Source of the DNA: Pseudomonas sp. R5-89-07
GTDB lineage: Bacteria; Pseudomonadota; Gammaproteobacteria; Pseudomonadales; Pseudomonadaceae
Reading direction: 5' to 3'
DNA length: 64,000 bases
Assembly (NCBI RefSeq): GCF_003851685.1
Contig: NZ_CP027727.1
Span: forward strand, 2,852,001-2,916,000
Shown here in pieces: positions 8,581 through 27,555 of this stretch; within the stretch, counting starts at the first letter, position 1; each line of letters opens with the position of its first letter. The notes beneath the pieces are model-generated. The model had not been told where the DNA came from and did not search any database. It was given only the letters and a program-made list of their open reading frames with translations. The translations under genes and the position numbers were made by a program.

Positions 8581-8593
8581 AAAAACCTCCGGG

Positions 8594-9321: not shown

Positions 9322-9628
9322 GCGCCACATCCTCCAATGGGGTAAGTGGCTACCAATCTACCCATGGCCGGGCGGGAGGAATAAGAATATCGACAGCTAA
9401 GGTTATGCTCGTCTTTTCAGGTCAGGCATAGGGGATCAGAAAGCCCGGTCTGCAATTAAGCCCCTGGATCGTTTCTATCTTTCGCCCATGTGAGCGACTG
9501 GCGTATGGCAGGTCGAATAGCATTCTTGTTGCGTGGTTATATCCTCATGTTTTTTTAATATTTCTTGTTATATGGGGCGAGCAGTAAAGTACTGCTAATT
9601 CCTTCATGGCCGCCATTGGAAATTGTCT
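9322..9628. promoter_or_regulatory. Divergent intergenic region with a perfect 7-3-7 inverted repeat
   Basis: This stretch separates the minus-strand SDR/CmcJ pair from the plus-strand sigma-54 activator. A T-rich patch lies at 9550-9572, and the inverted repeat AGCAGTAAAGTACTGCT lies at 9580-9596, 32 bp before the activator's ATG. That position, overlapping the likely promoter or leader, fits an operator for the activator gene. I do not recognise a clear -35/-10 pair, and there is no -24/-12 element. Confidence 0.45.
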
Positions 9629-13816: not shown

Positions 13817-14793
13817 GACTGGGCTCCTGTGGGTTGCCAGCCCAGTGCGAGTGCGATGTGTTCGCGGATGATCTCCAGGGCACGGATCGCCTCGCGCAGC
13901 GGCGTGCTGGTGGTTTGTACTTGCAGGATCAGTTGGTCGTGGGCGGTCAATGGCGGGCCTTGTTGCAATTGCTCGATGATCTGCTCCACCGGGCCGTGCA
14001 ACACGCCGAGGCGCTTGAGGGTGGTGTCGAAGTCAGCGTCCAGCGTGCCCTTGAGTACGCCGATGCTTTGCTGGCGTTGCACATAGGCCTGGATATCGCG
14101 GCGTGTGGCGTCGTCCGGTGCGGGGAGCAAGGCCTGCACCCGTGCTACGCGGGCGGGCGTGCCGTTGTCGCCGGTCCAGGCGTTGCGGTAACGGTTCACC
14201 CGTTCAATATCGGCTTGGGCAGGCAAATGCGGATTGGGTGCCATGATCAGGCCATGGCCACGTTCGGCTACCAGCTCCACCCGCGCGGTGGCTTCCCACA
14301 CACGCTGGCTCAAACCGTTGGTGCGTGGCAGGAGGCGGGAACCGCTGTCGGTCAGCGGCGCGTTGCCAAATGCATTGAGCAACTGTTGAAGGTGCTGCTC
14401 GTAGTCACGATGCCGTGTTTCATGCTCGCGGCCGAAGGCGACGAAGGTCTCAGGATCAAAACCCGCACCGAGGCCCAGTTCCAGTCGGCCGTTGCACAGC
14501 ACGTCCAGCACGGCGGCGTCTTCCGCCAGGCGCAGCGGCGCCTCCTGGGGTAATACGATAATTCCGGTGCCGAGGCTGATATGCCGTGTCTGCTGGGCGA
14601 CGGCCGCCAACAATACCAACGGCGACGGCAAGCGCCCATTTTCACTGGCGAAGTGGTGCTGCGCTAACCAGCCACTGTCAAAGCCCAGCGCTTCGGCAAC
14701 CTTGAACAGTTCCAGGGTGTCGCGGTAGACCTTGGGATCAGCACTCGGGCTATAGACCCGGCTCAGAAACCCGAGGGAAAAGCCTGCACTCAT
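13813..14793 (-). CDS. LLM-class flavin-dependent monooxygenase (tandem copy 1)
   Basis: The 326-residue protein starts MSAGFSLGFLSRVYSPSADP and has SGWLAQHHFASENGRLPSP, HISLGTGIIVLPQEAPLRLAED and GRLELGLGAG. It matches the next gene motif by motif, so the pair are tandem paralogs. It overlaps SurE upstream by 4 bp (ATGA) and copy 2 downstream by 4 bp. Like its relatives it should bind reduced FMN made elsewhere. Two kept copies hint at two substrates or a heterodimer. Confidence 0.82.
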   Translation of the reverse strand: MSAGFSLGFLSRVYSPSADPKVYRDTLELFKVAEALGFDSGWLAQHHFASENGRLPSPLVLLAAVAQQTRHISLGTGIIVLPQEAPLRLAEDAAVLDVLCNGRLELGLGAGFDPETFVAFGREHETRHRDYEQHLQQLLNAFGNAPLTDSGSRLLPRTNGLSQRVWEATARVELVAERGHGLIMAPNPHLPAQADIERVNRYRNAWTGDNGTPARVARVQALLPAPDDATRRDIQAYVQRQQSIGVLKGTLDADFDTTLKRLGVLHGPVEQIIEQLQQGPPLTAHDQLILQVQTTSTPLREAIRALEIIREHIALALGWQPTGAQS

Positions 14794-15704
14794 GGTTTCA
14801 CCTCATGGGCCAACTGCTTTTGCAGTGCTGGCCCTGCGCTGACGGATTCCGGCAGGCCACTGAACGGGCTGATGGTCAGGTAACCTTTGTTCAGCCACAC
14901 CGCTTCATCGTTCTGTTGCGCAGCGGTAGCGGCGGGGCTGTATTGGAAGCCGATGCCGGGTTTGCCGGGCAGGTTGAACTGCTTGAGATCATCGGTGTAC
15001 AGCGCCTCAAAACCCACATAGCTGCCGACGCGGGTCAGTTTGACGCCTTTTATCTGCGCATCCTTGGGCAGGTTGATATTCAAGCCCAGGCCCGGCGGTA
15101 GCAGCGCGCCATGGGGTTGGCGATGCTGGTCGAGGGCATGCACCAGGTTTGCTACCAGTTGGGCGGCGCGCTGCGGGTCTTTCTCCTTCAGATCAGTACT
15201 CACCGCCAATGCCGGAATGCCCGACTGCAACGCCACGCTGGCGGTATTGAAGGTACCGGAGGCCATATTGATCGCGCCGAGGTTATTGCCAGGGTTGGGG
15301 CCGACGATTACCAGGTCGGGATGTGGCAGGACTTTTTTCAGGCCCATCAGCAGTGCCATCACCGGCGTGCCGCTGATTTCGATCTGTACTGCTTTGCCGG
15401 CGCACTCGGTGCTCTGGCATAGGCCTTTGTCGGTGGTGCTGATGTAATAGCTGTCGGGGTAAGCGGGGTCGGTATCGCGCCCAACACTCACTTCGCGACC
15501 GAAAAAGAACGAACCGCCTCGCGCGCTCTGATCACTCTGAGGCGCGGCGATTTTCACGTTGTGACCCTGGGCTTTCAGCGCTGTGTAGAGTGCGCGAATG
15601 TTCGGATGCTGATAGCCGTCGTCGTTGCTCAGCAAGATATTCAAGGCGAAGGCTTTGGGGGCGATCATGCTGGCGAAGGCGAGCATCCAGGCGCTGCGTT
15701 TCAT
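14790..15704 (-). CDS. SurE-like 5'/3'-nucleotidase with an export signal
   Basis: The product has 304 residues from ATG 15704, which has a strong GGGAGGG site; an upstream extension is out of keeping. It starts with a signal peptide of about 20 residues ending APKAFA, then the SurE core: NILLSNDDGYQHPNIRAL with the metal-binding NDD, APQSDQSARGGS, SGTPV, and PDLVIVGPNPGNNLG. Classic SurE is cytoplasmic and hydrolyses nucleoside monophosphates or short polyphosphates; an exported version would act in the periplasm. It lies between flavin-monooxygenase genes with 4-bp overlaps on both sides. A phosphorylated or nucleotide-like substrate taken up by the TonB receptor is possible, but unproven. 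Confidence 0.85.
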   Translation of the reverse strand: MKRSAWMLAFASMIAPKAFALNILLSNDDGYQHPNIRALYTALKAQGHNVKIAAPQSDQSARGGSFFFGREVSVGRDTDPAYPDSYYISTTDKGLCQSTECAGKAVQIEISGTPVMALLMGLKKVLPHPDLVIVGPNPGNNLGAINMASGTFNTASVALQSGIPALAVSTDLKEKDPQRAAQLVANLVHALDQHRQPHGALLPPGLGLNINLPKDAQIKGVKLTRVGSYVGFEALYTDDLKQFNLPGKPGIGFQYSPAATAAQQNDEAVWLNKGYLTISPFSGLPESVSAGPALQKQLAHEVKP

Positions 15705-17035
15705 GCCCTCCCTCCCGTAAAGCGGTTGTCCGGGCGCGGCAGGCCGAGGTTTTCGCGCAGGGTGGTGCCCTCGTATTCCTGGCGAAACAACCCACGCGCC
15801 TGCAGCAGCGGAATCACCTGATCGACGAACACGTCGATGGCGCCAGGGAAGTAGGGAAAGAACACATTGAAGCCATCGCATGCCCGCGCCTGGAACCACG
15901 CCTCAAAGTGATCGGCAACGTCCTCGGCGGTACCCACTACAGGGTTGCCTCCGGCCAGGCGCAAGTACAACTGGCGGATGCTCAGGTTCTCCGTGCGCGC
16001 CAGTTCCAGCACCTTATCCCGACGGCTGCCGCGTTGGCCCACGGGGGTGTCCGGCAATGGGCCGTCGAGGTCGTGGCCGGAGAGGTCGATGTCATCGCCC
16101 AAGGTGTCGGCCAGCAGGCGCAGGCCCAGCACCGGGTCGATCAGCGCCTGGAACTCTTCGAACAGCACCTTGGCTTGTTCACGGGTACCGGCAATAAACG
16201 GTGTGACGCCGGGCAGGATTTTGACGTGATCCGGGTCGCGGCCGAGCGCAGCGGCGCGTGCCTTGATGTCCTGGTAGAACGCCTGGGCGCCTTCCACGTT
16301 ATGCGAGTGGGCGAAGATCAGTTCGGCAACCCGGGCGGCGAGTTGCTTGCCCGGCTCCGAGGCGCCGGCCTGCACCAGTACCGGGTGGCCCTGGGGCGGG
16401 CGCGCCACGTTGAGCGGGCCGCGTACGGCAAAGTGCTTGCCGCGATGGTTGAGGGTGTGCAATTTGGCCGGGTCGAAATACTCGCCACTGGCTTTATCGC
16501 GGGTAAAGGCGTCGTCGTCCCAGCTGTCCCACAGATCCTTGACCACGTCATGGAACTCTTCGGCACGCTGGTAGCGGTCGCCATGGTCGACGTGGTGTTC
16601 GCGGCCGAAATTCCACGCTTCATCCGAAACCACCGAGGTCACCAGGTTCCAGGCGGCGCGTCCCTTGGACAGATGGTCCAGGGACGCGAATTTGCGCGCG
16701 ATATGGTACGGCTCGTTGTAGGTGGTGGTCGCGGTTGCAATCAGCCCGATGTTGTTTGTGACGGCAGCCAGGGCCGACATCAACGTCAGCGGTTCGAAGT
16801 GTTCGGCGCGCGCCGTACGGCTCAGGGCATCGTGATGGTGGCCCCACAAGGCGACCACATCGGCAATAAACAGTGCATCGAACTTGCCGCGCTCGGCGGT
16901 CTGCGCAATGTGTTTGAAATGCTCGAAATCCAGGCTGGCATCGGCTTGGGCCAGCGGGTGGCGCCAGGCGGCGACGTGGTGGCCGCTGTTGGCGAGGAAG
17001 GCCCCCAGTTTGAGTGTGTCGGTGCGGCGGGTCAT
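15701..17035 (-). CDS. NtaA/DmoA family FMN-dependent monooxygenase
   Basis: The 444-residue product has the longer layout of the NtaA/SnaA/DmoA family: LKLGAFLANSGHHVAAWRHP near the start, FDALFIADVV, NLVTSVVSDEAWNFG, HRYQRAEEF-type and WDSWDDDAF segments, then GKHFAVRGPLNVARPPQG and PVLVQAGASEPG. Relatives attack nitrilotriacetate, dibenzothiophene desulfurisation intermediates and dimethyl sulfide using FMNH2 and O2. It is the second gene of the sigma-54 operon, 57 bp after the TonB receptor, and overlaps SurE by 4 bp. Several luciferase-like enzymes in one operon suggest stepwise or broad-range oxidation. Confidence 0.88.
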   Translation of the reverse strand: MTRRTDTLKLGAFLANSGHHVAAWRHPLAQADASLDFEHFKHIAQTAERGKFDALFIADVVALWGHHHDALSRTARAEHFEPLTLMSALAAVTNNIGLIATATTTYNEPYHIARKFASLDHLSKGRAAWNLVTSVVSDEAWNFGREHHVDHGDRYQRAEEFHDVVKDLWDSWDDDAFTRDKASGEYFDPAKLHTLNHRGKHFAVRGPLNVARPPQGHPVLVQAGASEPGKQLAARVAELIFAHSHNVEGAQAFYQDIKARAAALGRDPDHVKILPGVTPFIAGTREQAKVLFEEFQALIDPVLGLRLLADTLGDDIDLSGHDLDGPLPDTPVGQRGSRRDKVLELARTENLSIRQLYLRLAGGNPVVGTAEDVADHFEAWFQARACDGFNVFFPYFPGAIDVFVDQVIPLLQARGLFRQEYEGTTLRENLGLPRPDNRFTGGRA

Positions 17036-17092: not shown

Positions 17093-19528
17093 TTAAAAGT
17101 TGTACGTCACGCCGGTGTACCAGTAGCCGCCGGTGGTGCCGTAGGGCGAGAAGTTGCCATAGGGAAAGCCACCCGAGCTGCTGGCCAGGTCAGTGCGTTC
17201 CGGGTACTTGTTGAACAGGTTGTTGGCGCCTGCATTCAGAGTGATCGCCGGGGTCAGGTGGTAGTCGATGTTCAGGTCGGTGATCCACGCTGGCGAGAAC
17301 GTGCGGTCGAAGGATTCGGCGGTGCCGTATTGGGTGTACTCGCCGTAGCGGGTCAGGTTGAGGCCGATCTCGAACTTGTCGACGGTCCAGGTGGTGCCCA
17401 GCAGCAGTTTGGATTGCGGCAAACCGTACTTGAGGTTGCCCTGGCGCTGACGGTCATAACCACCGGTTGGGCCGAGGGCTTGTTGGGCCACGCTGGAGGC
17501 GTGGATGTCGTCGATCTGCGTGGTGTTCCAGTTAAAGCCCAAGGTGTAGCGCAGGTTGCCGTAGGCACCGATGCTCTGGCGGTAGTCTCCGACGAGGTCG
17601 ACGCCACGGGTGGTGGTATCGAGGGCGTTAGTGAAATAGGTCACCGCCTGGTTCGGGTTCAGACCCGCTGCTGCGAGGATTGCGCTGATTTGCGGTGTGC
17701 CGCCCAGGTAGCCGGTTTGCGCGATGCGGTCCTTGATTTTGATCTGGTAGGCATCCAGGGTGATGCTGGTGGCGTCCGTCGGTTGCAGGGTCAGGCCCAG
17801 GCTGAAGTTGGTGGACTTCTCGGGTTTGAGCGTTTCGGCACCGAGCGCCTTGGCCACGTCGGAGTTGACCGCCACGTTACGGTAGTCGAACAGCTGGCCG
17901 TTGACGCTGCTCTGCGAGGTGGAGCTGTAGATCTGCTGGGCCAGCGAAGGCGCACGGAAACCGGTGCTGAAGGTGCCGCGTACTGCCAGGATCGGTGTGA
18001 GTTGGTAGCGCGTGGAGAACTTGCCGTTAGTCGTGGTGCCCGAGCCATCGTTGTAGTGCTCGTAGCGACCGGCCAGGTCGACGTGCCATTTTTCGGTGAA
18101 GTCCTGGCCGATCTCACCGTACCCGGCGAGGCTGGTGCGGCCTTTTTGTGCAGCATCCTGCGGCGTGGTACCGGCACCGGAGATGGTGCCCGGTGCGATC
18201 AGGCCACCGCTGGCGCCGGTGGTGAAAGGGCCGCTGGCGTAGGAGGCGAGGTCACCCTTGCCGATCTTGTAGTTCTCGTAGCGTTGCTCCAGGCCCCAGG
18301 AAATCTGCGTGGGTTTGTGCAGGCCGAAGTCAAAGGCGCGGGTCAGGTCGAGGTTGTTGGTCCATTGGCTGAAGGTTTTGACGCCGGTGTCTACCGAGGT
18401 CGGCGAGTCCGGGCCGTAGCTCAGGTTGTAGGTGTGACGCAGGGTCGCTTCGGCGTGGTCCTGGCCATAGGTGCTGGACAAGTCATAGTCCCAGCCGGCG
18501 AGTTCGCCCTTGCCGCCAAACGCTACCTGGAAGTCATTTTCGATAAAACGCAGGGTGTCTTCGATGCCTTCGGGGAAGGGTGTGCGGATGCCATCGAAGC
18601 TGGCGGGCTGGTGGAAAGCCAGCGGTTTTTCCGAGTTGCGGCGGGTGTAAGTGGAGAACGAGTAGAGCGTGAGGGCATCGTCCACCGGCAGCTCGGCGTT
18701 GTAGCCGAAACTGAAGTTGCGTGCCTCGGGCAGGCCGGTGCCGTAGTAGGTGTGTTGCAGGCTGGTGTTGCCGGCCGAGTCGGTATACGGCGCGTTGTCG
18801 GAGCGGTCGGAGATCTTCTGTTTTTTCACGTCCAGGGCGAGGTTGATAAAGCCGTCGTTGGGCAGCGCCAGGCCGACATTGCCGGTTTGGCGCGCGGTTT
18901 CGCCATCGCCGTTTTCATAGTTCTGGCCGTAGCTGGTGGACAGGCTGCCGCCGTGGTCGGTCTGCTTGAGCACGATGTTGACCACGCCACCAATCGCATC
19001 CGAACCATACTGGGCCGAGGCGCCGTCACGGAGCACTTCGACATGATCCACCAGAGCGGTGGGGATCATGTCCAAGTCCACCGGTTGCGAGCCGGAGTTG
19101 AGGTAGGTGCCGTTATTGAGCAGCGCGCTATTGTGGCGACGCTTGCCGTTGACCAGTACCAGCACCTGGTCGCCGTTGAGGCCACGCAGGCTGATCGGGC
19201 GTACCACCGATGTTGAGCCGAAGCCTGACGATGCTGGCTGATTGAGGGATGGCAGTACCTTGCTCAGGGCGCGGGTGAGGTCGCCCTGGCCAGTGGCGAG
19301 CAATTGCTTGGACGAGATCACATCCACCGGCGCCGGGCTTTCGGCCAGGGTGCGCGCCTGGCCACGGTTGCCGATCACCACAACGGTGTCCAAGGGGTTA
19401 TCGCTGGCCGGCGCGTCGGCGGCGAGCGTCAGGCTGCTGTAGCTGGCGGCTTCGTACAGGGCAATAAACAACAACGTGTGGGCGAAGGCCTTACCGGGTC
19501 GGCGACCTATGGCGCGTGATGCATTCAT
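17093..19528 (-). CDS. TonB-dependent outer-membrane receptor
   Basis: The 811-residue product has an N-terminal export region of about 38 residues, a plug domain with SPAPVDVISSKQLL, LVLVNGKRRHN and SAQYGSDAIGGVVNIVL, and a barrel ending ...GVTYNF. It is a paralog of the receptor at 1948-4368. It is first in the seven-gene operon with flavin monooxygenases and SurE, and a -24/-12 promoter lies 86 bp before its ATG. It probably brings in the operon's substrate, perhaps a large or scarce organosulfur compound. The ligand itself cannot be read from the sequence. Confidence 0.9.
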   Translation of the reverse strand: MNASRAIGRRPGKAFAHTLLFIALYEAASYSSLTLAADAPASDNPLDTVVVIGNRGQARTLAESPAPVDVISSKQLLATGQGDLTRALSKVLPSLNQPASSGFGSTSVVRPISLRGLNGDQVLVLVNGKRRHNSALLNNGTYLNSGSQPVDLDMIPTALVDHVEVLRDGASAQYGSDAIGGVVNIVLKQTDHGGSLSTSYGQNYENGDGETARQTGNVGLALPNDGFINLALDVKKQKISDRSDNAPYTDSAGNTSLQHTYYGTGLPEARNFSFGYNAELPVDDALTLYSFSTYTRRNSEKPLAFHQPASFDGIRTPFPEGIEDTLRFIENDFQVAFGGKGELAGWDYDLSSTYGQDHAEATLRHTYNLSYGPDSPTSVDTGVKTFSQWTNNLDLTRAFDFGLHKPTQISWGLEQRYENYKIGKGDLASYASGPFTTGASGGLIAPGTISGAGTTPQDAAQKGRTSLAGYGEIGQDFTEKWHVDLAGRYEHYNDGSGTTTNGKFSTRYQLTPILAVRGTFSTGFRAPSLAQQIYSSTSQSSVNGQLFDYRNVAVNSDVAKALGAETLKPEKSTNFSLGLTLQPTDATSITLDAYQIKIKDRIAQTGYLGGTPQISAILAAAGLNPNQAVTYFTNALDTTTRGVDLVGDYRQSIGAYGNLRYTLGFNWNTTQIDDIHASSVAQQALGPTGGYDRQRQGNLKYGLPQSKLLLGTTWTVDKFEIGLNLTRYGEYTQYGTAESFDRTFSPAWITDLNIDYHLTPAITLNAGANNLFNKYPERTDLASSSGGFPYGNFSPYGTTGGYWYTGVTYNF

Positions 19529-19613: not shown

Positions 19614-19629
19614 AGCAAGGGCTGTGCCA
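19614..19629 (-). promoter_or_regulatory. Sigma-54 (-24/-12) promoter of the TonB receptor/monooxygenase operon
   Basis: Read on the minus strand the site is TGGCACAGCCCTTGCT: TGGCAC, five bases, TTGCT. GG and GC are 10 bases apart, exactly the sigma-54 consensus spacing. The predicted start is near 19603, giving a leader of about 75 bases to the receptor ATG at 19528. Confidence 0.85.
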
Positions 19630-19630
19630 T

Positions 19631-19697
19631 CTGTTAAAATTGTTTAAAAACATAGGCTTATTGGGTATTAAACGGGGGGTTGGTGTTTTTTTAACAG
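19631..19697. promoter_or_regulatory. Inverted repeat between divergent sigma-54 promoters (candidate activator site)
   Basis: CTGTTAAAA (19631-19639) and TTTTAACAG (19689-19697) form perfect inverted arms 49 bp apart. A further TGTTTAAAAACA near-palindrome lies at 19641-19652. The segment sits between the two -24/-12 elements, where an enhancer-binding protein could serve both. Binding by the SfnR-like protein is inference. Confidence 0.45.
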
Positions 19698-19780
19698 GCT
19701 GAAGGGCAGGGTGTTGGTTTTCGTGCAGGGGCTTTCATCGGCAACCGGGTATTGAGCCGTAAGGCTTGGGTGGTTGTGCT

Positions 19781-19796
19781 TGGCACACGACTTGCT
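19781..19796 (+). promoter_or_regulatory. Sigma-54 (-24/-12) promoter of the P1 peptidase gene
   Basis: The site TGGCACACGACTTGCT matches the consensus with GG to GC spacing of 10. The predicted start is near 19806, about 30 bases before the ATG at 19837, with the ribosome site AAGGAAG in between. It is divergent from the promoter at 19614-19629. Confidence 0.85.
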
Positions 19797-19836
19797 CTCC
19801 CCACGCGACACCCTGACCCAAGGAAGCTATTTCTGT

Positions 19837-20829
19837 ATGCCTAGACCCGGCCCGCGCAATGCCCTCACCGATATCCCAGGCCTCACGGTCGGCCACGCCA
19901 CGGACCTGCGCGTCGACACCGGCGTCACAGTGATTCGCCCCAATGGTTTCTGGACTGCCAGCATCGACATTCGCGGCGGTGGCCCTGGCGGGCGCGAAAC
20001 GGCCGCGCTTGAGCCGGAAAACATGGTCGGCCAGCTCCACGCTCTGGTTTTCGCCGGCGGCTCGGTGTTCGGCCTGGGCGCGGCGGATGCCGTGGCGGCA
20101 AAACTGTCTCAGGACGAGGTGGGCCTGCACTTGAAACCCGGCGCCCCGGCAATCCCCATAGTGCCCGCTGCCGTGTTGCACGACTTGGCCAACGGCGGCG
20201 ACAAGGACTGGGGCCTGGACCCGCCTTACCGACGCCTGGGCTTTGAAGCGCTGGCCAATGCTGAAGAAGATTTCAGGTTGGGCTCGGTGGGCGCCGGCCG
20301 TGGCGCCATGGCCGGTGTATTGAAAGGCGGGCTGGGTACCGCCTCGCTGGACCTGGGTGACGGATTGGTCGTCGCCGCACTGGTCGTCGCCAACCCCATT
20401 GGCTCGGTGTACATGCCCGACGGTAAAACGTTCTGGGCCTGGCCCTGGGAAGTGGCGGGGGAGTTCGGTGGGCAGCGTCCTGAAGCCGAGATGGACTGCA
20501 GCGACCCGATGCCGGAGCTGTCACGCCTGGATTCGATGGGCCGCCTGCAAGCCGGGGCCAACACGACGCTGGTGGTAGTCGCCAGTACCGCTCGGCTCAC
20601 TGTGGCTGAGTGCAAGCGCGTGGCAATCATGGCTCAGGACGGGATTGCCCGTGCGGTGCGTCCGGCGCATTTGCCGTTTGATGGGGACACGGTATTTGCC
20701 TTGGCGTCGGCGGCGGTTGAGTTGACCGATGGCCCACGGCGGCAGGTGGAGATTGGCTGTATTGGCTCGGCGGCCGCGGATTGCGTGGCGCGGGCGATTG
20801 CCAGAGGTGTGTTTAATGCCAGGGGCTAG
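19837..20829 (+). CDS. P1 family peptidase (DmpA/BapA-like N-terminal nucleophile aminopeptidase)
   Basis: The 330-residue product has the P1 signature: start NALTDIPGLTVGHATD, then RGGGPGGRETAAL, FAGGSVFGLGAADAV, and GAGRGAMAGVLKGGLG. The likely self-cleavage site is in AGANTTLVVVAS, where the Thr after Asn (or a nearby residue) becomes the nucleophile of the small subunit. Relatives release D-amino acids, beta-amino acids or L-amino acids from short peptides or amides. It starts at ATG 19837 because AAGGAAG lies upstream and the sigma-54 promoter would initiate at about 19806. Its sigma-54 control links it to the neighbouring scavenging genes; it may free a sulfur-containing amine or amino acid. 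Confidence 0.88.
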   Translation: MPRPGPRNALTDIPGLTVGHATDLRVDTGVTVIRPNGFWTASIDIRGGGPGGRETAALEPENMVGQLHALVFAGGSVFGLGAADAVAAKLSQDEVGLHLKPGAPAIPIVPAAVLHDLANGGDKDWGLDPPYRRLGFEALANAEEDFRLGSVGAGRGAMAGVLKGGLGTASLDLGDGLVVAALVVANPIGSVYMPDGKTFWAWPWEVAGEFGGQRPEAEMDCSDPMPELSRLDSMGRLQAGANTTLVVVASTARLTVAECKRVAIMAQDGIARAVRPAHLPFDGDTVFALASAAVELTDGPRRQVEIGCIGSAAADCVARAIARGVFNARG

Positions 20830-20843
20830 CCGCGATCAACTGT

Positions 20844-20865
20844 AGGAGCCGACAAGCCGGCTCCT
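20844..20865. terminator. Stem-loop between convergent genes
   Basis: AGGAGCCG (20844-20851) pairs with CGGCTCCT (20858-20865) over a 6-base loop in the 41-bp gap between the convergent peptidase and TPR genes. It could end transcription from both sides, and the sequence also resembles short Pseudomonas REP-type hairpins. Confidence 0.55.
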
Positions 20866-20870
20866 GCTGT

Positions 20871-22211
20871 TCAGGTGAAACGTGATAGGCGCGTCTGTGC
20901 CTTCGCCGCCAGCGCCGGCAACCTCAACGCCTCATACACCCGCACCAAACGCCGATTCGTCGGCACATCCCACCCGTCATACCGGCGCCGCAATTCCAGT
21001 GTCTGCTGCGCCCCCAACCAATCACCGGCCTTCACTCGTGCATCCAGCTCCACCAGGGCAAACAGATCGCGTTGTGCGTGGCTGCCACCAATCTCATTCA
21101 GCCGGGGAAGGGCGATCGTCAGTTGCGCCAGCGACTGTTGCCAGTCGCCACGTGCATGGGCCAATAAGCCCTTCGCCAACGGCAGGGTCACTTCGCCCCA
21201 CACCGGCCGTGCGCCGAAGCTGTGTTGCCGCAGCGCCGCCAGCAACCTGTCCGCCTCCGGCTTGCCCGCCCGGGCCAGGCCATACAGGTACTGCACGCTC
21301 AGGAACGGTTGTACCGTATCGCAGACCCGGCGTTGCAGGTACGGTGCCAGCGCCTGCCAGCGCTCGCCCACATCGATGCCGGCCAGTTCCAATCGCGCGA
21401 GCAAGGACACGGCGCCGACCTGGTCCTGAGAGTATTCCGGGAGGATGCCCCACACGTGCTGGTCGTAAATCTCCAGCACGCGCTGATCCTCGCCCCGCGC
21501 CAGGTAGAACAACGCCAGGTGCCACCAGTTGTGGGTGTACATGAACGAGTTCAAACCGTTCCAGTGATGGGTCACGCTTTGCAGGAATGCCGTGCCTTCT
21601 TCGATGCGTCCCTGGGTCAACATCACATGGGCCAGGGCGTGCTGGGCCCAAGGCTCCGAGGGTTGCAGGCGCAAGGCTTGCAGCGCGCTGGCTTCGGCTT
21701 CTTCGAGCAGGTGGCATTGCTCGTAGGCGAACGCCAGCAGACCGTGGCTGTGGGCAATATCGGGTGCGCCAGTGGTGGCCTTCAGGCCGATGCGCAACAG
21801 GGCGGGCCAGTTGCCGCGGTTGAATTCAAGGTACTGGTTGAGCTTGGCGGCAAACAGGTCGCGGGGGTAGCGGTCGAGCAGGTGTTCGCTCAAATGCAGG
21901 ACTTGATCGAGGTCGTCCTTGATCCAGGCTTGCAGCACGCCAAGGTACAGCAGGGCGCGCGGGTGAGCGGCGTGCGCCGCACGTTGGCGGTATTTTTCCG
22001 CCAGTGCCGGGCCTTCGGGCGACTCGATGAACATCAGCAGCAAGCCGGCAAACGCATTGGCCAGCGCGGAGTCGGGATCGGCATCGGCGGTGGCAAGGAT
22101 GCGTTCGGCGCGGGGCTGGTAGCCGAGGAAGCCGCCCATGAAATCATCCAGGCCCTGGCGGGTGACGGGGTTGGTGGTGTCGATGGGGTTGCCCAGGTAA
22201 TCCAGTGACAT
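20871..22211 (-). CDS. Tetratricopeptide-repeat protein (TTC38-like)
   Basis: The 446-residue product has no signal peptide and consists of helical pairs with TPR spacing, for example ARALLYLGVLQAWIKDDLDQ and the AEASALQALRLQPSEPWAQH segment. A region SFMYTHNWWHLALFYLARG resembles the TTC38/YcaP-type bacterial TPR proteins whose function is unknown. TPR folds bind other proteins. A -24/-12 element 38 bp upstream ties it to the local sigma-54 group. I cannot assign a biochemical role. Confidence 0.75.
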   Translation of the reverse strand: MSLDYLGNPIDTTNPVTRQGLDDFMGGFLGYQPRAERILATADADPDSALANAFAGLLLMFIESPEGPALAEKYRQRAAHAAHPRALLYLGVLQAWIKDDLDQVLHLSEHLLDRYPRDLFAAKLNQYLEFNRGNWPALLRIGLKATTGAPDIAHSHGLLAFAYEQCHLLEEAEASALQALRLQPSEPWAQHALAHVMLTQGRIEEGTAFLQSVTHHWNGLNSFMYTHNWWHLALFYLARGEDQRVLEIYDQHVWGILPEYSQDQVGAVSLLARLELAGIDVGERWQALAPYLQRRVCDTVQPFLSVQYLYGLARAGKPEADRLLAALRQHSFGARPVWGEVTLPLAKGLLAHARGDWQQSLAQLTIALPRLNEIGGSHAQRDLFALVELDARVKAGDWLGAQQTLELRRRYDGWDVPTNRRLVRVYEALRLPALAAKAQTRLSRFT

Positions 22212-22248
22212 GGTGGCGAGGCTCGTTGATTCAGATGACGGTTACAGG

Positions 22249-22264
22249 GGCAAACCTTGTGCCA
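22249..22264 (-). promoter_or_regulatory. Sigma-54 (-24/-12) promoter of the TPR gene
   Basis: On the minus strand the site reads TGGCACAAGGTTTGCC, with correct spacing and only the last base off consensus (C for A/T). The predicted start is near 22239, about 28 bases before the ATG at 22211. Confidence 0.7.
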
Positions 22265-22283
22265 TCGGCCAGCGGTGAACCAC

Positions 22284-22371
22284 TGTGGGAGGGGCTTGCC
22301 CCCGATAGTGGCGGGTCAGTTGGCTCATTCATCGATGACCCACCGCTATCGGGGGCAAGCCCCCTCCCACA
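22284..22371. repeat. Paired REP elements (inverted)
   Basis: TGTGGGAGGGGCTTGCCCCC at the left end is mirrored by a near-perfect reverse copy ending CCCCTCCCACA at 22371, with shorter CGATAGTGG/CCGCTATCG arms inside. This is the common Pseudomonas REP doublet (BIME-like). It sits between two divergent sigma-54 promoters. Confidence 0.85.
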
Positions 22372-22475
22372 TTTGAAAGGCTTTGCTGCTGCTTTTTGCA
22401 CACTCAGGCGCAGCTCTGTGGTTTTTTCATCAGCGCGATCACCGCCAACCCCAGCAATACCCGCCCAAACCCCCA

Positions 22476-22491
22476 TGGCACAGCGCTTGCA
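22476..22491 (+). promoter_or_regulatory. Sigma-54 (-24/-12) promoter of the dipeptide-type ABC operon
   Basis: TGGCACAGCGCTTGCA matches the consensus fully, with 10 bases between GG and GC. The predicted start is near 22502, giving a leader of about 26 bases that contains the GAGGAG ribosome site at 22517-22522. Confidence 0.85.
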
Positions 22492-22527: not shown

Positions 22528-24111
22528 ATGCGCCCATTTTCTTTCCGCCGTGCCCTCACGTCCGTGGCACTGTGCACCGCGTTGCTGGCCGGCCAGGCTC
22601 AGGCGCAAACGCAGGAGGGCGGCGTGCTCAATCTGGTGGCCCAGCCGGAGCCGCCCTCGCTGATGCACGGTGTAGTCAGCCATGTGTCGACCCAATACGT
22701 GAGCGGCAAGGTGCTCCAGGGCCTGCTCACCTTCGACACACACCTTGCGCCCAAACCGGTATTGGCCAAAGCCTGGACGATCTCCCCTGACGGCCTCACC
22801 TATACCTTCGACCTGCAGGACGGCGTGCACTGGCACGACGGCCCAGCGTTCACCGCCGATGACGTGGTGTTCAGCTTCCAGGCCTTCTACCCCGAGGTGG
22901 ACAAACGTCTCGGCGGGATCATCACCGAGTACGTCCAGAGCATCACCGCCAAAGGTCCGCTGCAGGTGGTCTTTCACCTGAAGAAACCGTTCGCGCCGTT
23001 GCTTTCGGCCTTGGGCAGCGGCTTGCGCCCAGTGGTGCCGAAGCACCTTTACGAGAACACCGACTTTCGTAACAACCCCTACAACCTGAAACCGGTGGGT
23101 ACCGGGCCGTTTGTGTTCGTCGAGTGGAAACGCGGCGCCTACATCAAACTGGCCAAGAACCCCAACTACTGGAAAAAGGGCCTGCCGCACCTCGACAGCA
23201 TCATCTTCCACGTCATTCCTGATGCCTCTTCGCGTGCCGCCGCGTTCGAGCGTAACGACGTGCAAGTGCTGCGCAGCGGCGATGCGGATTACTCCGACCT
23301 CAAGCGCCTGACCGCCTTGCCCGATGTGCAGTCGTCGGAAAAGGGCTGGGAGTTGTACTCGGGCCTGGCCTTCCTGCAAATCAACACGCGCAAGCCGCCG
23401 CTGAACAACCCCAAGGTGCGCCAGGCGATCCTGTATGCGCTGAACCGACAGTTCATCGTCGATAACATCTTCTTCGGCTCGGGCAAGGTCGCCCAGGGGC
23501 CGTTTGTGTCCAGCTCGCCTTACCATGATCCCCAGTTGCCGCAGTACGCCTACGACGTGAAAAAGGCCAAAGCGCTGATTGCCGAATCCGGTGTGGATGT
23601 CGGCGCGGTGCGTATTCGCCTGCTCAATGGCGAGAAGGGTGGTGCCTGGGAGCGCCTGGCCGAATACACCAAGCAGTCCTTGCAGCCCCTGGGTTTCAAG
23701 GTGCAGGTGGTGACGTCCGACGCGGCGACCTGGTTCCAACGCGTGAGCGACTGGGACTTCGACCTGACCTACAACTTTATTTTCCAGATCGGCGATCCCT
23801 ACCTGACCAGCGCCTACCTGTTCCGCTCCGACTACATACTCAAAACCTCGCCGTTCGCCAACGTCAGCGGCTACAACAGCGCCGAGGCCGATGCCTTGTG
23901 GGCGAAAGTCGCCGATACCCCGGAAGGCCCGGAGCGCAAACAGCTCTACAGCCAGTTGGAGAACCTGCTGAACACCGACCTGCCCATCGCACCGATCTTC
24001 GAAATGCGTTACCCGACGCTGTTTCACAAACAGGTGAAAAACCTGCTGCAGACCGCTACCAGCCTTAACGAGGACTACGAGAGTGTGTACCTCGAGGCCC
24101 TGGCACCATGA
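22528..24111 (+). CDS. Peptide-type ABC transporter periplasmic binding protein (SBP_bac_5)
   Basis: The product has 527 residues from ATG 22528, set by GAGGAG six bases upstream. It has a signal peptide of about 26 residues ending AQAQA (no lipobox), then LNLVAQPEPPSL, the family motif YTFDLQDGVHWHDGPAFTADDV, GTGPFVFVEWKRG and late QIGDPYLTSAYLFRS. It is first of five overlapping plus-strand genes under a sigma-54 promoter. Ligand is unknown; the operon context suggests an organosulfur or peptide-like nutrient rather than common dipeptides. It is a paralog in type of the lipoprotein at 289-1920, but that one is lipid-anchored. Confidence 0.88.
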   Translation: MRPFSFRRALTSVALCTALLAGQAQAQTQEGGVLNLVAQPEPPSLMHGVVSHVSTQYVSGKVLQGLLTFDTHLAPKPVLAKAWTISPDGLTYTFDLQDGVHWHDGPAFTADDVVFSFQAFYPEVDKRLGGIITEYVQSITAKGPLQVVFHLKKPFAPLLSALGSGLRPVVPKHLYENTDFRNNPYNLKPVGTGPFVFVEWKRGAYIKLAKNPNYWKKGLPHLDSIIFHVIPDASSRAAAFERNDVQVLRSGDADYSDLKRLTALPDVQSSEKGWELYSGLAFLQINTRKPPLNNPKVRQAILYALNRQFIVDNIFFGSGKVAQGPFVSSSPYHDPQLPQYAYDVKKAKALIAESGVDVGAVRIRLLNGEKGGAWERLAEYTKQSLQPLGFKVQVVTSDAATWFQRVSDWDFDLTYNFIFQIGDPYLTSAYLFRSDYILKTSPFANVSGYNSAEADALWAKVADTPEGPERKQLYSQLENLLNTDLPIAPIFEMRYPTLFHKQVKNLLQTATSLNEDYESVYLEALAP

Positions 24112-25085
24112 ACGGCGTGTTGTATTTCAGCGGGCGGCTCGTCAAGGCGTTGCTGATGGTGGTGGCGGTGCTGGTGCTGAGTTTCCTGCTGATTCGACTG
24201 GCGCCGGGCGATCCTGCATTGCTGTTGGCAGGAGAGGCGGGCGTCGACGATGCGCAGTTTATCGAGCATCTGCGCCAGACCATGGGCCTGGATAAACCGC
24301 TGCTCCAGCAGTTGCTGATATACCTGGGCAATATCGCCCACCTGGACCTGGGTTATTCCTACCGAAACCAGACGTCGGTGTGGTCGCTGATCGCCGAGCG
24401 GTTGCCGGCGACGCTGGCACTGATGGGCTCGGCCTTTGTGGTGTCTTCCGTGCTCGGTGTGACCTTGGGTGTGCTGGCGGCGCGGGCACGGCAGAAGCGG
24501 CATTGGCTGGACGACGTGATCTCCCACGGTGCTTTGTTGTTGTACGCGATGCCGCCGTTCTGGCTGGCGATGCTGATGATTTTGCTGTTCTCCGTAAGTC
24601 TGGATTGGTTGCCGGCGTTCGGTATGGAGACCGTGGGCCGGGACTTCTCGCTGCTGGATCGCCTGCGGCATCTGTTGTTGCCGTGCCTATCCCTGAGCGT
24701 GCTGTTTCTGGCCCTGTATATCCACCTCACCCGAGCCGCCGTGCTCGATGCCCTTGGTCAGGAATACGTGCGCACTGCTCATGCCAAAGGCCTGCATCCA
24801 CGACGGATTCTGTATGTACATGTGTTGCGCAATGCACTGCTGCCGGTGGTGACTTTCGCGGGTTTGCAACTCGGCCAACTGGCCAGCGGTGCGTTACTGG
24901 TGGAGGTGGTGTACTCCTGGCCTGGCATTGGCCGCTTGATGTATGACTCATTGGCCCAGCGTGACTACGGTGTATTGATGGGCGGCTTTCTGGTGATCTC
25001 GGTTCTGGTGGTGGGCTTCAATGTGTTGACCGATGCGATTTGCCGTTTGCTCGACCCACGTATTGGCGCCGGAGGGCAGGGCTGA
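24108..25085 (+). CDS. ABC transporter permease, DppB type
   Basis: The 325-residue product has an N-terminal helix, a periplasmic part with LIRLAPGDPA and LGYSYRNQTSVWSLI, then five helices and the EAA-like coupling loop EYVRTAHAKGLHPRRIL. It overlaps the binding-protein gene by 4 bp (ATGA) and abuts the next permease (TGATG). It forms the channel with the DppC-type partner. Confidence 0.9.
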   Translation: MNGVLYFSGRLVKALLMVVAVLVLSFLLIRLAPGDPALLLAGEAGVDDAQFIEHLRQTMGLDKPLLQQLLIYLGNIAHLDLGYSYRNQTSVWSLIAERLPATLALMGSAFVVSSVLGVTLGVLAARARQKRHWLDDVISHGALLLYAMPPFWLAMLMILLFSVSLDWLPAFGMETVGRDFSLLDRLRHLLLPCLSLSVLFLALYIHLTRAAVLDALGQEYVRTAHAKGLHPRRILYVHVLRNALLPVVTFAGLQLGQLASGALLVEVVYSWPGIGRLMYDSLAQRDYGVLMGGFLVISVLVVGFNVLTDAICRLLDPRIGAGGQG

Positions 25086-25912
25086 TGGCGGTGCTCACAC
25101 GCTTTATTCACCAGCCGTCGGCGCTGGCCGGCGCGGTGTTTTTGCTGGTTCTGGCAGCACTGGCGGCTGCCGCGCCGTGGCTCACCAGCAGCTCGCCCTG
25201 GGAAATGAACACCCAGCCGATGCTCCCGCCGTTCCACGATTCGGCACACTGGCTGGGCAGCGACATGCTTGGCCGCGACCTCGGCAGCGGCTTGCTCTAC
25301 GGCGCCCGTGTGTCCCTGGCCGTGGGGGTGTTGACCAGTCTGGCGACCTTGCTGGTGGGGCTGCTCGTCGGCGCTGTCGCCGGTTATTTCGGTGGCTGGC
25401 TCGACGGCGTGCTGATGCGGATCGCCGAGTTCTTTCAGATCATTCCGCAGTTAGTGTTGGCGGTGATCCTGGTGGCGGTGCTGGAACCGTCCCTGGGTTC
25501 CATCGTGCTGGCGATTTCGCTGGTGGCGTGGCCGGGCGTCGCGCGGCTGGTGCGCAGCGAATTCCTTACCCTGCGACAACGTGAGTTTGTGCAGGCGGCG
25601 CGGGTGCTGGGGCAATCTCCATTAGGCATCATCCGCCAACAAATCCTGCCCAATGCCTTGGCGCCGTTGTTGGTGACCATGACCTTTGTGATGGCCACTG
25701 CAATCCTCACGGAAGCCGCGCTAGCGTTTCTCGGCCTGAGCGACCCTGAGGCCATGAGCTGGGGTTACATGATCAATGCGTCCCGTGGGCTGCTGCGGGA
25801 TGCCTGGTGGATGAGCTTCCTGCCGGGGTTGGCGATTGTGCTGTGCGTGCTGGCGGTGAACCGGGTGGGCGAAGGCCTGCGCCTGGCCTTTGAACCGGGG
25901 AGGTCGCTATGA
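25085..25912 (+). CDS. ABC transporter permease, DppC type
   Basis: The 275-residue product starts at the ATG sharing a base with the preceding stop. It has a first helix at about 16-38, the periplasmic HWLGSDMLGRDLGSGLLYGA motif of DppC/OppC proteins, four to five more helices, and the coupling loop REFVQAARVLGQSPLGII. It pairs with the DppB-type permease. It overlaps the ATPase gene by 4 bp. Confidence 0.9.
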   Translation: MAVLTRFIHQPSALAGAVFLLVLAALAAAAPWLTSSSPWEMNTQPMLPPFHDSAHWLGSDMLGRDLGSGLLYGARVSLAVGVLTSLATLLVGLLVGAVAGYFGGWLDGVLMRIAEFFQIIPQLVLAVILVAVLEPSLGSIVLAISLVAWPGVARLVRSEFLTLRQREFVQAARVLGQSPLGIIRQQILPNALAPLLVTMTFVMATAILTEAALAFLGLSDPEAMSWGYMINASRGLLRDAWWMSFLPGLAIVLCVLAVNRVGEGLRLAFEPGRSL

Positions 25913-27555
25913 CGTTGCTCAGTGTGGATAACCTGCGTATCGCCTTGCCGGCCGGTGCCGACCGCAGTCACGCGCTGTATGACCTGTCGCTGCAATTGCG
26001 CAGCGGCGAATGCCTGTGTGTAGTAGGCGAGTCCGGCTCGGGCAAGTCGATGTTGGCCAAGGCATTGTTGCGCCAGTTACCGACGCCGCTGAGCGTGGAA
26101 AGCGGGCGCATGGTGTTTCGTGATCAAGACTTGGCGACACTCAGTGAGACCGCGATGCGCCAGCTGCGCGGGCGCGATATCAGCATGGTGTTCCAGGAGC
26201 CCATGAGCGCGCTGAACCCGCTGTTGCGCGTGGGTGAGCAGATCGATGAAACCCTGCGCGCCCACGGGAGGAAATCGGCCCTGGAACGTCGCCGACGGGT
26301 TGTGGAGTTGCTGGGCTATGTCGGCCTGCCCGAGCCTGAACGCCTGCGCCTGGTCTATCCCTTTGAGCTCTCCGGTGGCCAGCGTCAGCGCGTGGTCATC
26401 GCCATGGCATTGGCGTTCGATCCCTCGCTGCTGATCGCCGACGAACCCACCTCGGCGCTGGACGTCACCACTCAGGCGCAGATCATCGACCTGTTACGCA
26501 AGATTCAACAGGACAAGGGCATGGCGCTGTTGTTCATCACCCATGACTTCGCCGTGGTCGAGGCCATTGCCGACCGCGTGCTGGTGCTGGAAAAAGGTCA
26601 ATTGGTGGAGCAGGGCAGCGCCCATCAAGTATTGCGCAAGCCTCAGGCGCTTTATACCCAGCAACTGTTGGCAGCGGTCTCGGCGCAACCGCGGGCCCCG
26701 CGCACGGCGGTGGACGGGAGTGTGGTGCTCAAGGCCGAGCAACTCAATAAAGTGTTTCACAGCCACAGCGGTTGGTGGCGCAAGCGTGCCATCCAGGCCC
26801 TGGCGCAGGTTCAGTTGACCCTGCGCGAGGGTGAAACCCTGGGCATTGTTGGGGAATCAGGCTCGGGGAAATCCACGCTGGGGCGTTGCCTTGTTCGGCT
26901 GCTACGTGCTGACAGTGGTCAAATTCAATGGCTGGGTCAGGATGTAACGGTGCTGTCCGAAGGGCGTTTGCGAGCATTGCGCAGCGACGTGCAGATGGTC
27001 TTCCAGGACCCGTTTGCCTCGCTGAATCCGCGCCAGACCGTCGGGCGTATCGTCATGACCGGCCCGCTGGTGCAGGGACACTCAAAGGCCGAGGCCGAGC
27101 GGCGCGCGCGGACAATACTGGAGTTGGTTGGGCTACCCACAGCCGCGTTCGAACGCTATCCTCATGAGTTCTCCGGTGGCCAGCGCCAGCGTATCGGTAT
27201 CGCCCGTGCCTTGGCTGTGGAGCCGAAAATACTCATCGCGGACGAATGCGTTTCCGCTCTGGATGCGTTGATCCAAGTACAGATTCTCGAGTTGCTTGAA
27301 GACCTGCAACGTCGACTCAAGCTGAGCATTGTGTTCATCACCCACGACTTGCGAGTGGCCGCCAGACTGTGTGATCGCATTGCCGTGATGCAGGACGGGC
27401 ATGTGGTGGAGCAGGGGGAAACGGCAACGCTGCTCACCCACCCGCAACATGTTTATACGCAGACCCTATTGCGTGGTGTTTCCCGGGCAGCATCCCCTTC
27501 GACAATCATCCCTCAAAACCTTGAATCCCAAGAGGCTTGTCCCACTCATGGCTGA
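25909..27555 (+). CDS. Fused double ATP-binding subunit of peptide-type ABC transporter (DppD-DppF)
   Basis: The 548-residue product contains two complete ATPase domains. The first has Walker A GESGSGKS (40-47), LSGGQRQRV and IADEPTSALD. The second, after a linker near residue 265, has a second GESGSGKS, FSGGQRQRI and IADECVSALD, where the usual DEP is DEC. Single-chain fusions of this kind replace the separate DppD and DppF. It powers the two permeases. The hydrolase gene starts within its last codons (8-bp overlap). Confidence 0.9.
   Translation: MTLLSVDNLRIALPAGADRSHALYDLSLQLRSGECLCVVGESGSGKSMLAKALLRQLPTPLSVESGRMVFRDQDLATLSETAMRQLRGRDISMVFQEPMSALNPLLRVGEQIDETLRAHGRKSALERRRRVVELLGYVGLPEPERLRLVYPFELSGGQRQRVVIAMALAFDPSLLIADEPTSALDVTTQAQIIDLLRKIQQDKGMALLFITHDFAVVEAIADRVLVLEKGQLVEQGSAHQVLRKPQALYTQQLLAAVSAQPRAPRTAVDGSVVLKAEQLNKVFHSHSGWWRKRAIQALAQVQLTLREGETLGIVGESGSGKSTLGRCLVRLLRADSGQIQWLGQDVTVLSEGRLRALRSDVQMVFQDPFASLNPRQTVGRIVMTGPLVQGHSKAEAERRARTILELVGLPTAAFERYPHEFSGGQRQRIGIARALAVEPKILIADECVSALDALIQVQILELLEDLQRRLKLSIVFITHDLRVAARLCDRIAVMQDGHVVEQGETATLLTHPQHVYTQTLLRGVSRAASPSTIIPQNLESQEACPTHG

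What the first reader, a model, noticed from the sequence alone, without database searches (positions are those of the whole stretch)
19614..22491. Four sigma-54 promoters within 2.9 kb, near an SfnR-like activator gene
TGGCAC-N5-TTGC elements with exact spacing precede four separate units: the TonB receptor/monooxygenase operon (19614-19629, minus), a P1 peptidase (19781-19796, plus), a TPR gene (22249-22264, minus) and a dipeptide-type ABC operon (22476-22491, plus). Four such matches this close, each just before a start codon, are very unlikely by chance. The activator gene of SfnR type (9629-10708) sits at the end of one target operon. Together these define a local sigma-54 regulon that joins outer-membrane uptake, oxidative cleavage, peptide hydrolysis and ABC import. 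SfnR's role in organosulfur use is known from P. putida; the regulon here is inference.
Basis: partly seen in the sequence, partly recalled or inferred. Interest (0 to 1): 0.78.

Follow-up and report, generated by a model that had tools for sequence, protein, structure and literature searches.

The report
SfnR-like sulfur-scavenging regulon in Pseudomonas
In a Pseudomonas, four neighbouring gene units that seem to import and break down an unknown, probably sulfur-containing compound share one conserved set of DNA switches, most likely thrown by a dedicated activator encoded next door.

Summary
Four exact TGGCAC-N5-TTGC elements lie at the stated places: the only exact ones in 64 kb and 4 of 20 in the 6.0-Mb genome. 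Such a cluster arose in 1 of 400,000 random placements. They form two divergent pairs conserved in related Pseudomonas: 93 of 94 promoter positions in 26 loci not used to build the matrix. The 9629-10708 activator occurs in exactly the 14 of 249 genus genomes that hold the cluster, in five of them not on the same contig stretch. Among the genome's activators it groups with two paralogs lying beside sulfur genes. The genome's only two perfect CTGTTG-N6-CAACAG palindromes lie 110.5 and 95.5 bp upstream of the -12 of sfnG and a sulfonate ABC operon. Best reading: an SfnR-family activator dedicated to this cluster. Sulfur is supported by context only; the substrate is unknown; no experiment was possible.

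The parts
9535..9574 (+). AT-rich block upstream of the activator gene, recognisable in most relatives even where the gene sits in another neighbourhood; candidate site for the activator gene's own control (CysB suspected, not shown)
   Evidence: one match in the own genome at up to 3 mismatches, 0 for the reversed pattern; not seen in L030, L033, L123
9629..10708 (+). sigma-54 activator (359 aa), AAA+ domain from residue 31, no N-terminal sensor domain found, weak C-terminal Fis-type HTH
10716..11852 (-). FMNH2-dependent luciferase-like monooxygenase, SsuD-like
   Evidence: below the TIGR03565 cut-off
11845..12822 (-). divergent SsuD-like luciferase-family protein
12839..13816 (-). luciferase-like monooxygenase related to TIGR04027 (below cut-off)
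13813..14793 (-). luciferase-like monooxygenase related to TIGR04027 (below cut-off)
14790..15710 (-). SurE-type protein with an apparent signal peptide (signal peptide judged by eye; start chosen by eye)
15701..17035 (-). NtaA/DmoA-family FMN-dependent monooxygenase; YtnJ and DszA-labelled entries among its better solved relatives
17093..19528 (-). TonB-dependent outer-membrane receptor, first gene of the monooxygenase operon
19614..19629 (-). sigma-54 -24/-12 element for the TonB receptor operon
19680..19697 (+). enhancer-like box A1
19711..19728 (+). enhancer-like box A2
19781..19796 (+). sigma-54 -24/-12 element for the S58 hydrolase
19837..20829 (+). S58 (P1 family) hydrolase, ThnT/NylC-like, Asn242-Thr243 pair aligned with ThnT
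20871..22211 (-). 446-aa TPR-like protein, no Pfam family
22249..22264 (-). sigma-54 -24/-12 element for the TPR-like gene
22386..22403 (+). enhancer-like box B1
22416..22433 (+). enhancer-like box B2
22476..22491 (+). sigma-54 -24/-12 element for the ABC operon
22528..24111 (+). dipeptide/nickel-type substrate-binding protein
24108..25085 (+). ABC permease (DppB/NikB type)
25085..25912 (+). ABC permease (DppC/NikC type)
25909..27555 (+). double ABC ATPase (GsiA type)
27545..28465 (+). alpha/beta-fold hydrolase, last gene of the ABC operon (start uncertain)

Best explanation
The locus is a sigma-54 regulon with a dedicated activator. RpoN holoenzyme waits closed at four -24/-12 promoters arranged as two divergent pairs: TonB receptor-monooxygenases facing the S58 hydrolase, and the TPR-like gene facing the ABC operon. 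The 9629-10708 protein, a sensorless SfnR-family activator, binds boxes (majority CTGNTG-N-TTTTT-CAACAG, usually two, 30-31 bp apart) inside each divergent region and opens the promoters on both sides, so outer-membrane uptake, ABC import, amide hydrolysis and oxidative cleavage come on together. Because the activator has no sensor domain, its amount, set by its own non-sigma-54 promoter under sulfur-starvation control (CysB suspected), is probably the signal. Most likely role: scavenging sulfur from an amide-containing organosulfur compound. Shown here by sequence: sites, boxes, spacings, conservation, co-occurrence, paralogy. Inferred: binding, activation, the signal, sulfur as the gain, and the substrate.
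For: Only four exact sites in 64 kb and 4 of 20 in the genome. In 13 orthologous loci from the genus sample 44 exact sites recur at the corresponding places. In 26 further non-duplicate loci, scored with a matrix from the first set, 42 of 42 (TonB/S58, 21 regions) and 51 of 52 (TPR/ABC, 26 regions) promoter positions are found, against 0.10 expected in shuffles; boxes 79 found against 0.025, all on one strand; first pairs 30 or 31 bp apart in all 32 regions that have two or more. Box-to-TonB-promoter distances are 73.5-74.5 and/or 104.5-105.5 bp in every region-A row. Activator orthologs (75% identity or more) and cluster orthologs (TPR 64% or more) occur in the identical 14 of 249 genomes; they are about 69 kb apart in G059 and on different contigs in G067, G140, G009 and G234. 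Sulfur: among this genome's activators its clade (100/100) holds only the paralogs beside a DszC/SfnB-like gene and beside MetQ. In relatives the activator follows MetN- and MetI-like genes (L095; MetI over its cut-off, MetN under) or a 71-aa TOBE gene (L030, L033, L105) with an 87% homolog downstream of ssuE-ssuA-ssuD in the own genome. The only two perfect CTGTTG-N6-CAACAG palindromes of the genome sit 110.5 bp upstream of the sfnG -12 and 95.5 bp upstream of an SsuA-family operon's -12 (distances by hand). The monooxygenases' best solved relatives include entries labelled alkanesulfonate monooxygenase, YtnJ and DszA.
Against: No transcription, binding or growth data. The activator's loop 1 reads GSFSGA/GAFSGA instead of the canonical GAFTGA (consensus recalled), though this is shared by its orthologs. 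Its HTH scores just under the Pfam cut-off (21.9 against 22). The window boxes share only 8 to 10 of 12 half-site positions with the sfnG-type palindrome, and the box matrix scores that palindrome poorly. Of 47 test regions 11 have one box and 4 none above threshold. Stray matrix hits exist: in the 26 loci (523 kb) 2 promoter and 6 box hits outside the two regions, one box hit of 17.8 elsewhere in the window (52209), and 5 box hits and 1 promoter hit in 812 kb of non-Pseudomonas loci. The nearest box is 120 bp or more from the TPR promoter in many loci. The AT-rich block could not be tied to CysB. The nearer of the two paralogs by neighbourhood argument (MetQ side) is truncated and on a long branch. 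Some cluster genes could serve nitrogen or carbon use instead.
Confidence: 0.77

Rival explanations
1. The four promoters are real, but they are driven mainly by the genome's SfnR-type paralog (2049694-2050740) or by both activators, not by a dedicated regulator.
For: The paralog is 53-54% identical, aligned through the HTH region, and the box half-sites resemble the palindromes in front of sfnG and the sulfonate ABC operon.
Against: The window activator tracks the cluster exactly in 14 of 249 genomes, also when not a neighbour (the E-value limit, 1e-120, was set to leave the paralog out, whose own distribution was not counted). The cluster boxes carry a T-tract that the sfnG palindrome lacks.
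Confidence: 0.12
2. A real sigma-54 regulon, but for nitrogen or carbon supply from peptides or amides rather than sulfur; the monooxygenases act on other bonds.
For: In 45 fetched loci outside the Pseudomonas group the TPR gene is found with S58 in 26 and with S58 plus an ABC permease or binding protein in 20, and without matches (E 1e-25) to the cluster's monooxygenases, TonB receptor or activator (15 of the 45 have short flanks; TonB-like ORFs are visible by eye in L162 and L176). So the ancestral module looks like peptide or amide use. Sigma-54 is often tied to nitrogen (recalled).
Against: The activator's paralogs and alternative neighbours are mostly sulfur genes; the Pseudomonas version adds monooxygenases related to alkanesulfonate monooxygenase, YtnJ and DszA.
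Confidence: 0.1
3. Chance matches carried along by shared ancestry, with no promoter function.
For: Exact matches genome-wide (20) barely exceed the reversed-pattern control (14).
Against: Clustering probability about 2e-6, and near-complete retention of sites and spacings while much of the intergenic sequence has diverged.
Confidence: 0.01

Closest known systems
SfnR / sfnFG sulfate-starvation regulon of Pseudomonas putida (its papers seen only as titles in reference lists; passages of PMC8234197 read)
   Same: Sigma-54 activator of sulfur-scavenging flavin monooxygenase genes (from those titles). In this genome: a sensorless activator, TGGCAC-N5-YTGC promoters and enhancer-like sites with CTGTTG...CAACAG half-sites.
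   Different: The window gene is a separate paralog of the SfnR-like gene here (53-54% identical); T-tract boxes, mostly paired, instead of one palindrome; targets are a TonB receptor operon, S58 hydrolase, TPR-like protein and dipeptide-type ABC operon.
ssu/msu/sfn operons (SsuD, MsuD, SfnG)
   Same: FMNH2-dependent luciferase-family monooxygenases; the 10716-11852 protein best matches solved entries labelled alkanesulfonate monooxygenase (7jv3, 1nqk, 1m41; that these are MsuD and SsuD is recalled).
   Different: Below the family cut-offs; the genome's true SsuD is elsewhere (634.8 bits, over cut-off); five luciferase-family genes in one operon with no flavin reductase among the cluster proteins searched.
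YtnJ/CmoJ cysteine-salvage monooxygenase (CmoJ role per a PMC8234197 passage; that YtnJ is CmoJ, and its operon, recalled)
   Same: The 15701-17035 protein has YtnJ among its best solved relatives (399 bits).
   Different: Closest overall is 7e36_B (430 bits); sigma-54 control; TonB receptor and S58 hydrolase in the regulon.
ThnT and NylC Ntn hydrolases (S58)
   Same: Best PDB matches are ThnT-labelled entries (173 bits), with the Asn-Thr pair aligned.
   Different: ThnT is a biosynthetic pantetheine hydrolase (recalled; the PDB label is 'cysteine transferase'); here the gene sits in a scavenging-type regulon and its substrate is untested.

Membership tests
sigma-54 -24/-12 promoter | GG and GC dinucleotides at the right spacing in TGGCAC-N5-TTGC | tested here: met
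sigma-54 -24/-12 promoter | RpoN-dependent transcription start about 12 bp downstream | not testable with these tools
   needs RNA work
SfnR-type activator | AAA+ sigma-54 domain with no N-terminal sensor domain | tested here: met
SfnR-type activator | Fis-type HTH at the C-terminus | tested here: inconclusive
   PF02954 at 21.9 bits against cut-off 22; aligns with the SfnR-like paralog's C-terminus
SfnR-type activator | Canonical GAFTGA loop | tested here: not met
   GSFSGA in the window, GAFSGA or GSFSGA in three orthologs, GAFTGA in the paralog; motif recalled
SfnR-type activator | Groups with sulfur-linked paralogs, apart from the other activators of the genome | tested here: met
SfnR-type activator | Gene under CysB control | tested here: inconclusive
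   a conserved AT-rich block exists but could not be tied to CysB
SfnR (ortholog proper) | Controls sfnFG / dimethyl sulfone use | not tested
   the own genome has another SfnR-like gene; I file the window gene as a paralog, not as SfnR
SsuD (TIGR03565) | Score above the curated cut-off | tested here: not met
   372.4 against 518.2 bits for 10716-11852
NtaA/DmoA family (TIGR03860) | Score above the curated cut-off | tested here: met
   582.6 against 279.7 bits for 15701-17035
TIGR04027 (KPN_01858 type) | Score above the curated cut-off | tested here: not met
   247.9 and 216.7 against 412.9 bits
S58 peptidase | PF03576 over its cut-off | tested here: met
   171.4 against 23.9 bits
S58 peptidase | Asn-Thr autocleavage pair as in ThnT (role recalled) | tested here: met
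   N242-T243 aligned with ThnT

The most novel reading that the evidence does not exclude
The regulon is a sulfur-mining route for pantetheine-type (amide-linked cysteamine) or similar amide-bound organosulfur: TonB uptake, SurE-type dephosphorylation in the periplasm, dipeptide-type import, ThnT-like amide hydrolysis and flavin-dependent C-S cleavage. A Dpp-S58-TPR peptide module found in Alphaproteobacteria would have been rewired to sulfur starvation in Pseudomonas by a duplicated SfnR with its own T-tract enhancer code.
Probability: 0.1. Interest if true: 0.72.

Novelty: new variant of a known kind. Interest (0 to 1): 0.52.

Why it matters
If true, it is a compact, testable case of one sensorless sigma-54 activator commanding four divergent promoters through two shared enhancer regions, with natural spacing variants (including an inverted-repeat insertion between the boxes and one promoter in the window). 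It would also give a regulator and a likely physiological role to a Pseudomonas cluster for which the searches made here found no paper, and which holds a TPR-like protein of unknown function and an S58 amide hydrolase.

Tried and rejected
The genome-wide count of exact sites (20 against 14 for the reversed pattern) does not by itself show function; only clustering and conservation do. A sigma-54 site for the activator gene was looked for: the nearest candidate is TAGCATTCTTGTTGC at 9518 (2 mismatches), which has AG for GG; rejected. The AT-rich block in front of the activator was compared with fetched stretches of the own genome, sulfur genes among them; the best score was 12.7 against 57.8 for the window: inconclusive for CysB. 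The strict box pattern has 20 hits in the genome (control 2); by comparing the lists, none but the two cluster hits lies within 18 kb of an exact sigma-54 site, so no distant target was added. The looser palindrome search (up to 2 mismatches) gave 443 places per strand against 321 for the reversed pattern, so only its two perfect hits were used. A box in front of the TonB receptor divergent from the activator in G009 (L098) is weak (best 6.4). The S58 gene was first translated in a wrong frame and corrected. Literature: searches found no paper on this cluster in the held open-licence library; this does not cover most subscription journals. Two SfnR papers tried are not held, so published SfnR binding sites could not be compared.
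Full report
WHAT WAS CHECKED. They are the only exact matches in the 64-kb window. The own genome (5,997,145 bp) has 20 in all, against 14 for the reversed pattern, so most genomic matches may be noise. But 4 of 20 within 2,877 bp arose in only 1 of 400,000 random placements, analytically about 2e-6. Each faces a start codon: 87 bp for the TonB receptor, and 42, 39 and 38 bp for the S58 gene, the TPR-like gene and the ABC binding protein, counted from the -12 C.

CONSERVATION. A search of 249 genus genomes found the TPR-like gene at 64% identity or more in 14, the own genome included (10 more have 29-34% relatives, not followed up). Stretches around the 13 others (L025-L037) show the same gene order with some losses, and 44 exact elements at the corresponding places. 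Exceptions: the S58 site of L031 and the ABC sites of L032, L035 and L037 are TGGCAT-type; L027 holds only region B; L037 has no TonB match and one exact site. A genome-collection scan gave 80 named loci, the best of 168. With matrices built from the window and L025-L037, their intergenic regions hold 42 of 42 expected promoters in region A (21 loci with both genes adjacent) and 51 of 52 in region B (26 loci); 0.10 were expected in dinucleotide shuffles. Outside the two regions these loci (523 kb) show 2 promoter and 6 box hits at the same threshold.

ENHANCER-LIKE BOXES. They form an 18-bp motif, majority CTGNTG-N-TTTTT-CAACAG. T2, G3, G6, T8-T11 and C16 are invariant in the 22 distinct copies that I picked by eye for the matrix; the L037 copy breaks T11. 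In the window: 19680-19697 and 19711-19728 in region A; 22386-22403 and 22416-22433 in region B, with one weaker stray hit at 52209. In the test loci 79 boxes were found against 0.025 in shuffles, all on the same strand. Of 47 regions, 32 have two or more, 11 have one, and 4 (region B of L135, L137, L138, L142) have none; the first pair is spaced 30 or 31 bp in all 32, and four loci add a third box 50 bp further. In every region-A row the box centres lie 73.5-74.5 and/or 104.5-105.5 bp from the TonB -12. The distance to the ABC -12 is about 65-68/95-98 or 75-79/105-109 bp with one exception (L126). The nearest box lies 63.5 to 236.5 bp from the TPR -12. In the window the TPR distance is 144.5/174.5; L029, with a short region B, has 65.5/95.5. 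The window's extra 80 or so bases hold an inverted repeat at about 22288-22373, of REP kind by recall. Region A is nearly symmetric in the window: 73.5/104.5 bp to TonB and 106.5/75.5 to S58.

WHO ACTIVATES. The 9629-10708 protein is a 359-aa sigma-54 activator with its AAA+ domain from residue 31 and no sensor domain found. In the 249 genomes its orthologs (75% identity or more, E at most 1e-120, a limit set to leave out the 53% paralog; weakest match 3e-147) occur in 14, the same 14 that hold the cluster. In G059 the two are about 69 kb apart (activator to TPR gene), and in G067, G140, G009 and G234 they lie on different contigs (G234 partial at a contig end). A tree of the 22 activators found in this genome plus five orthologs puts the window protein and its orthologs with L039 and L040 (100/100), away from the other 19, of which L041 joins next (96/93); L040 is truncated and on a long branch.

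WHY SULFUR. L039's gene lies beside a DszC/SfnB-like gene (340 bits for DszC, 264 for SfnB, both below cut-off), and L040's beside a MetQ-family gene (235.5 bits, over cut-off). In relatives the activator follows MetN/MetI-like genes (L095; MetI 214.5 bits, over cut-off, MetN below), or a 71-aa TOBE gene 17 bp or less upstream (L030, L033, L105), or an ABC set whose nearest families are SaoP, nitrate, sulfonate and taurine transporters, none over cut-off (L100). One own-genome homolog of the TOBE gene (87%, 5674145-5674357) lies downstream of ssuE, ssuA and ssuD, all three over their cut-offs. The other (93%, 3260273-3260485) lies opposite a sulfonate ABC operon (SsuA family 262 bits, over cut-off). 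That operon has a TGGCACAGAGACTGC element and, 95.5 bp upstream of its -12, the palindrome CTGTTGCTCCAGCAACAG. sfnG (618 bits, over cut-off) has TGGCACGCTTGCTGC and, 110.5 bp upstream, CTGTTGCCAGGGCAACAG (distances by hand). These are the only two perfect CTGTTG-N6-CAACAG sites of the genome. I infer that this is the SfnR-type box and that the cluster boxes are a variant with similar half-sites and a T-tract; each window box matches 8 to 10 of 12 half-site positions. Published SfnR sites could not be compared.

WHAT IT DOES. The TonB-led operon carries an NtaA/DmoA-family monooxygenase (best solved relatives 7e36_B, then MoxC/YtnJ, 3sdo and DszA), a SurE-type protein, two proteins related to TIGR04027 and two SsuD-like proteins, the last closest to solved alkanesulfonate monooxygenases. 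The S58 hydrolase is closest to ThnT-labelled entries, with the Asn242-Thr243 pair aligned, then nylon hydrolases. The ABC operon is of dipeptide/nickel type; in 13 of the 26 test loci it is followed on the same strand by a second NtaA-type gene. Outside the Pseudomonas group, 45 fetched loci with TPR relatives have S58 in 26 and S58 plus an ABC permease or binding protein in 20. None has a match (E 1e-25) to the cluster's monooxygenases, TonB receptor or activator, though TonB-like ORFs are visible by eye in L162 and L176. In these 812 kb there is one promoter-matrix hit and five box-matrix hits. So an older amide/peptide module seems to have been joined to sulfur-type monooxygenases and sigma-54 control in Pseudomonas. 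The substrate is unknown; pantetheine-like amides are one possibility, resting only on the ThnT resemblance.

AGAINST. There are no expression data. Loop 1 of the activator is GSFSGA (GAFSGA or GSFSGA in three orthologs), not GAFTGA. Its HTH is just under the Pfam cut-off. CysB control of the activator is a guess. Cross-activation by the SfnR-like paralog cannot be excluded.

LITERATURE. Passages (not whole texts) were seen in PMC8234197, PMC12581299, PMC10256816, PMC13352529, PMC10949508, PMC3646685 and PMC8274868. The first three speak of sfn/msu/ssu genes or sfnR in Pseudomonas sulfur supply; PMC13352529 and PMC10949508 yielded little but reference-list entries on SfnR; none of the passages describes this cluster. 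Other papers were seen only in search listings or reference lists.

Noticed in passing
window 22288-22373: REP-like inverted repeat between the TPR promoter and the boxes, with that promoter 144.5/174.5 bp from them (65.5/95.5 in L029): a natural enhancer-distance variant.
   Followed up: partly
window 7747-9330: One ORF joins an SDR-like start to a CmcJ/NvfI-family oxidoreductase; in G017 (L107) the matching pieces overlap in different frames, so the SDR half looks disrupted here or there.
   Followed up: no
L077:5965-6909 (own genome about 264364-265308): A third SfnR-family activator gene, 314 aa, lacking the HTH region, beside a MetQ-family gene and amino-acid-type ABC genes; looks truncated.
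   Followed up: partly
L098:725-3067: In G009 the activator is divergent from another TonB receptor gene with its own TGGCACAACGCTTGCT element; possible extra target, no strong box.
   Followed up: partly
L032:14181-17176: In G245 the ABC operon is damaged (binding protein and permease matched only in part, ATPase in two pieces) although promoter-like sites and boxes remain.
   Followed up: no
L115: About 3 kb lies between the TonB and S58 genes; the boxes stay with TonB while S58 keeps its -24/-12 element about 2.8 kb away.
   Followed up: no
L144-L189 (not L160): Alphaproteobacterial and other loci: many keep a TPR + S58 + dipeptide-type ABC module without the cluster's monooxygenases or sigma-54 sites.
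   Followed up: partly
L099:3209-11629: Downstream of the activator in G245 lies another run with three SsuD-like genes (28-31% to the window's), ABC-type transport genes and a LysR-like gene (the last two by eye).
   Followed up: no
own genome 2390326-2390340: An exact copy of the TonB promoter 15-mer lies before other genes divergent from another sigma-54 activator gene (L065).
   Followed up: partly
L142:4606 and 15778 (stretch reversed): Two high box-matrix hits (22.9, 20.4) outside the two expected regions in Pseudomonas flavescens; context not examined.
   Followed up: no
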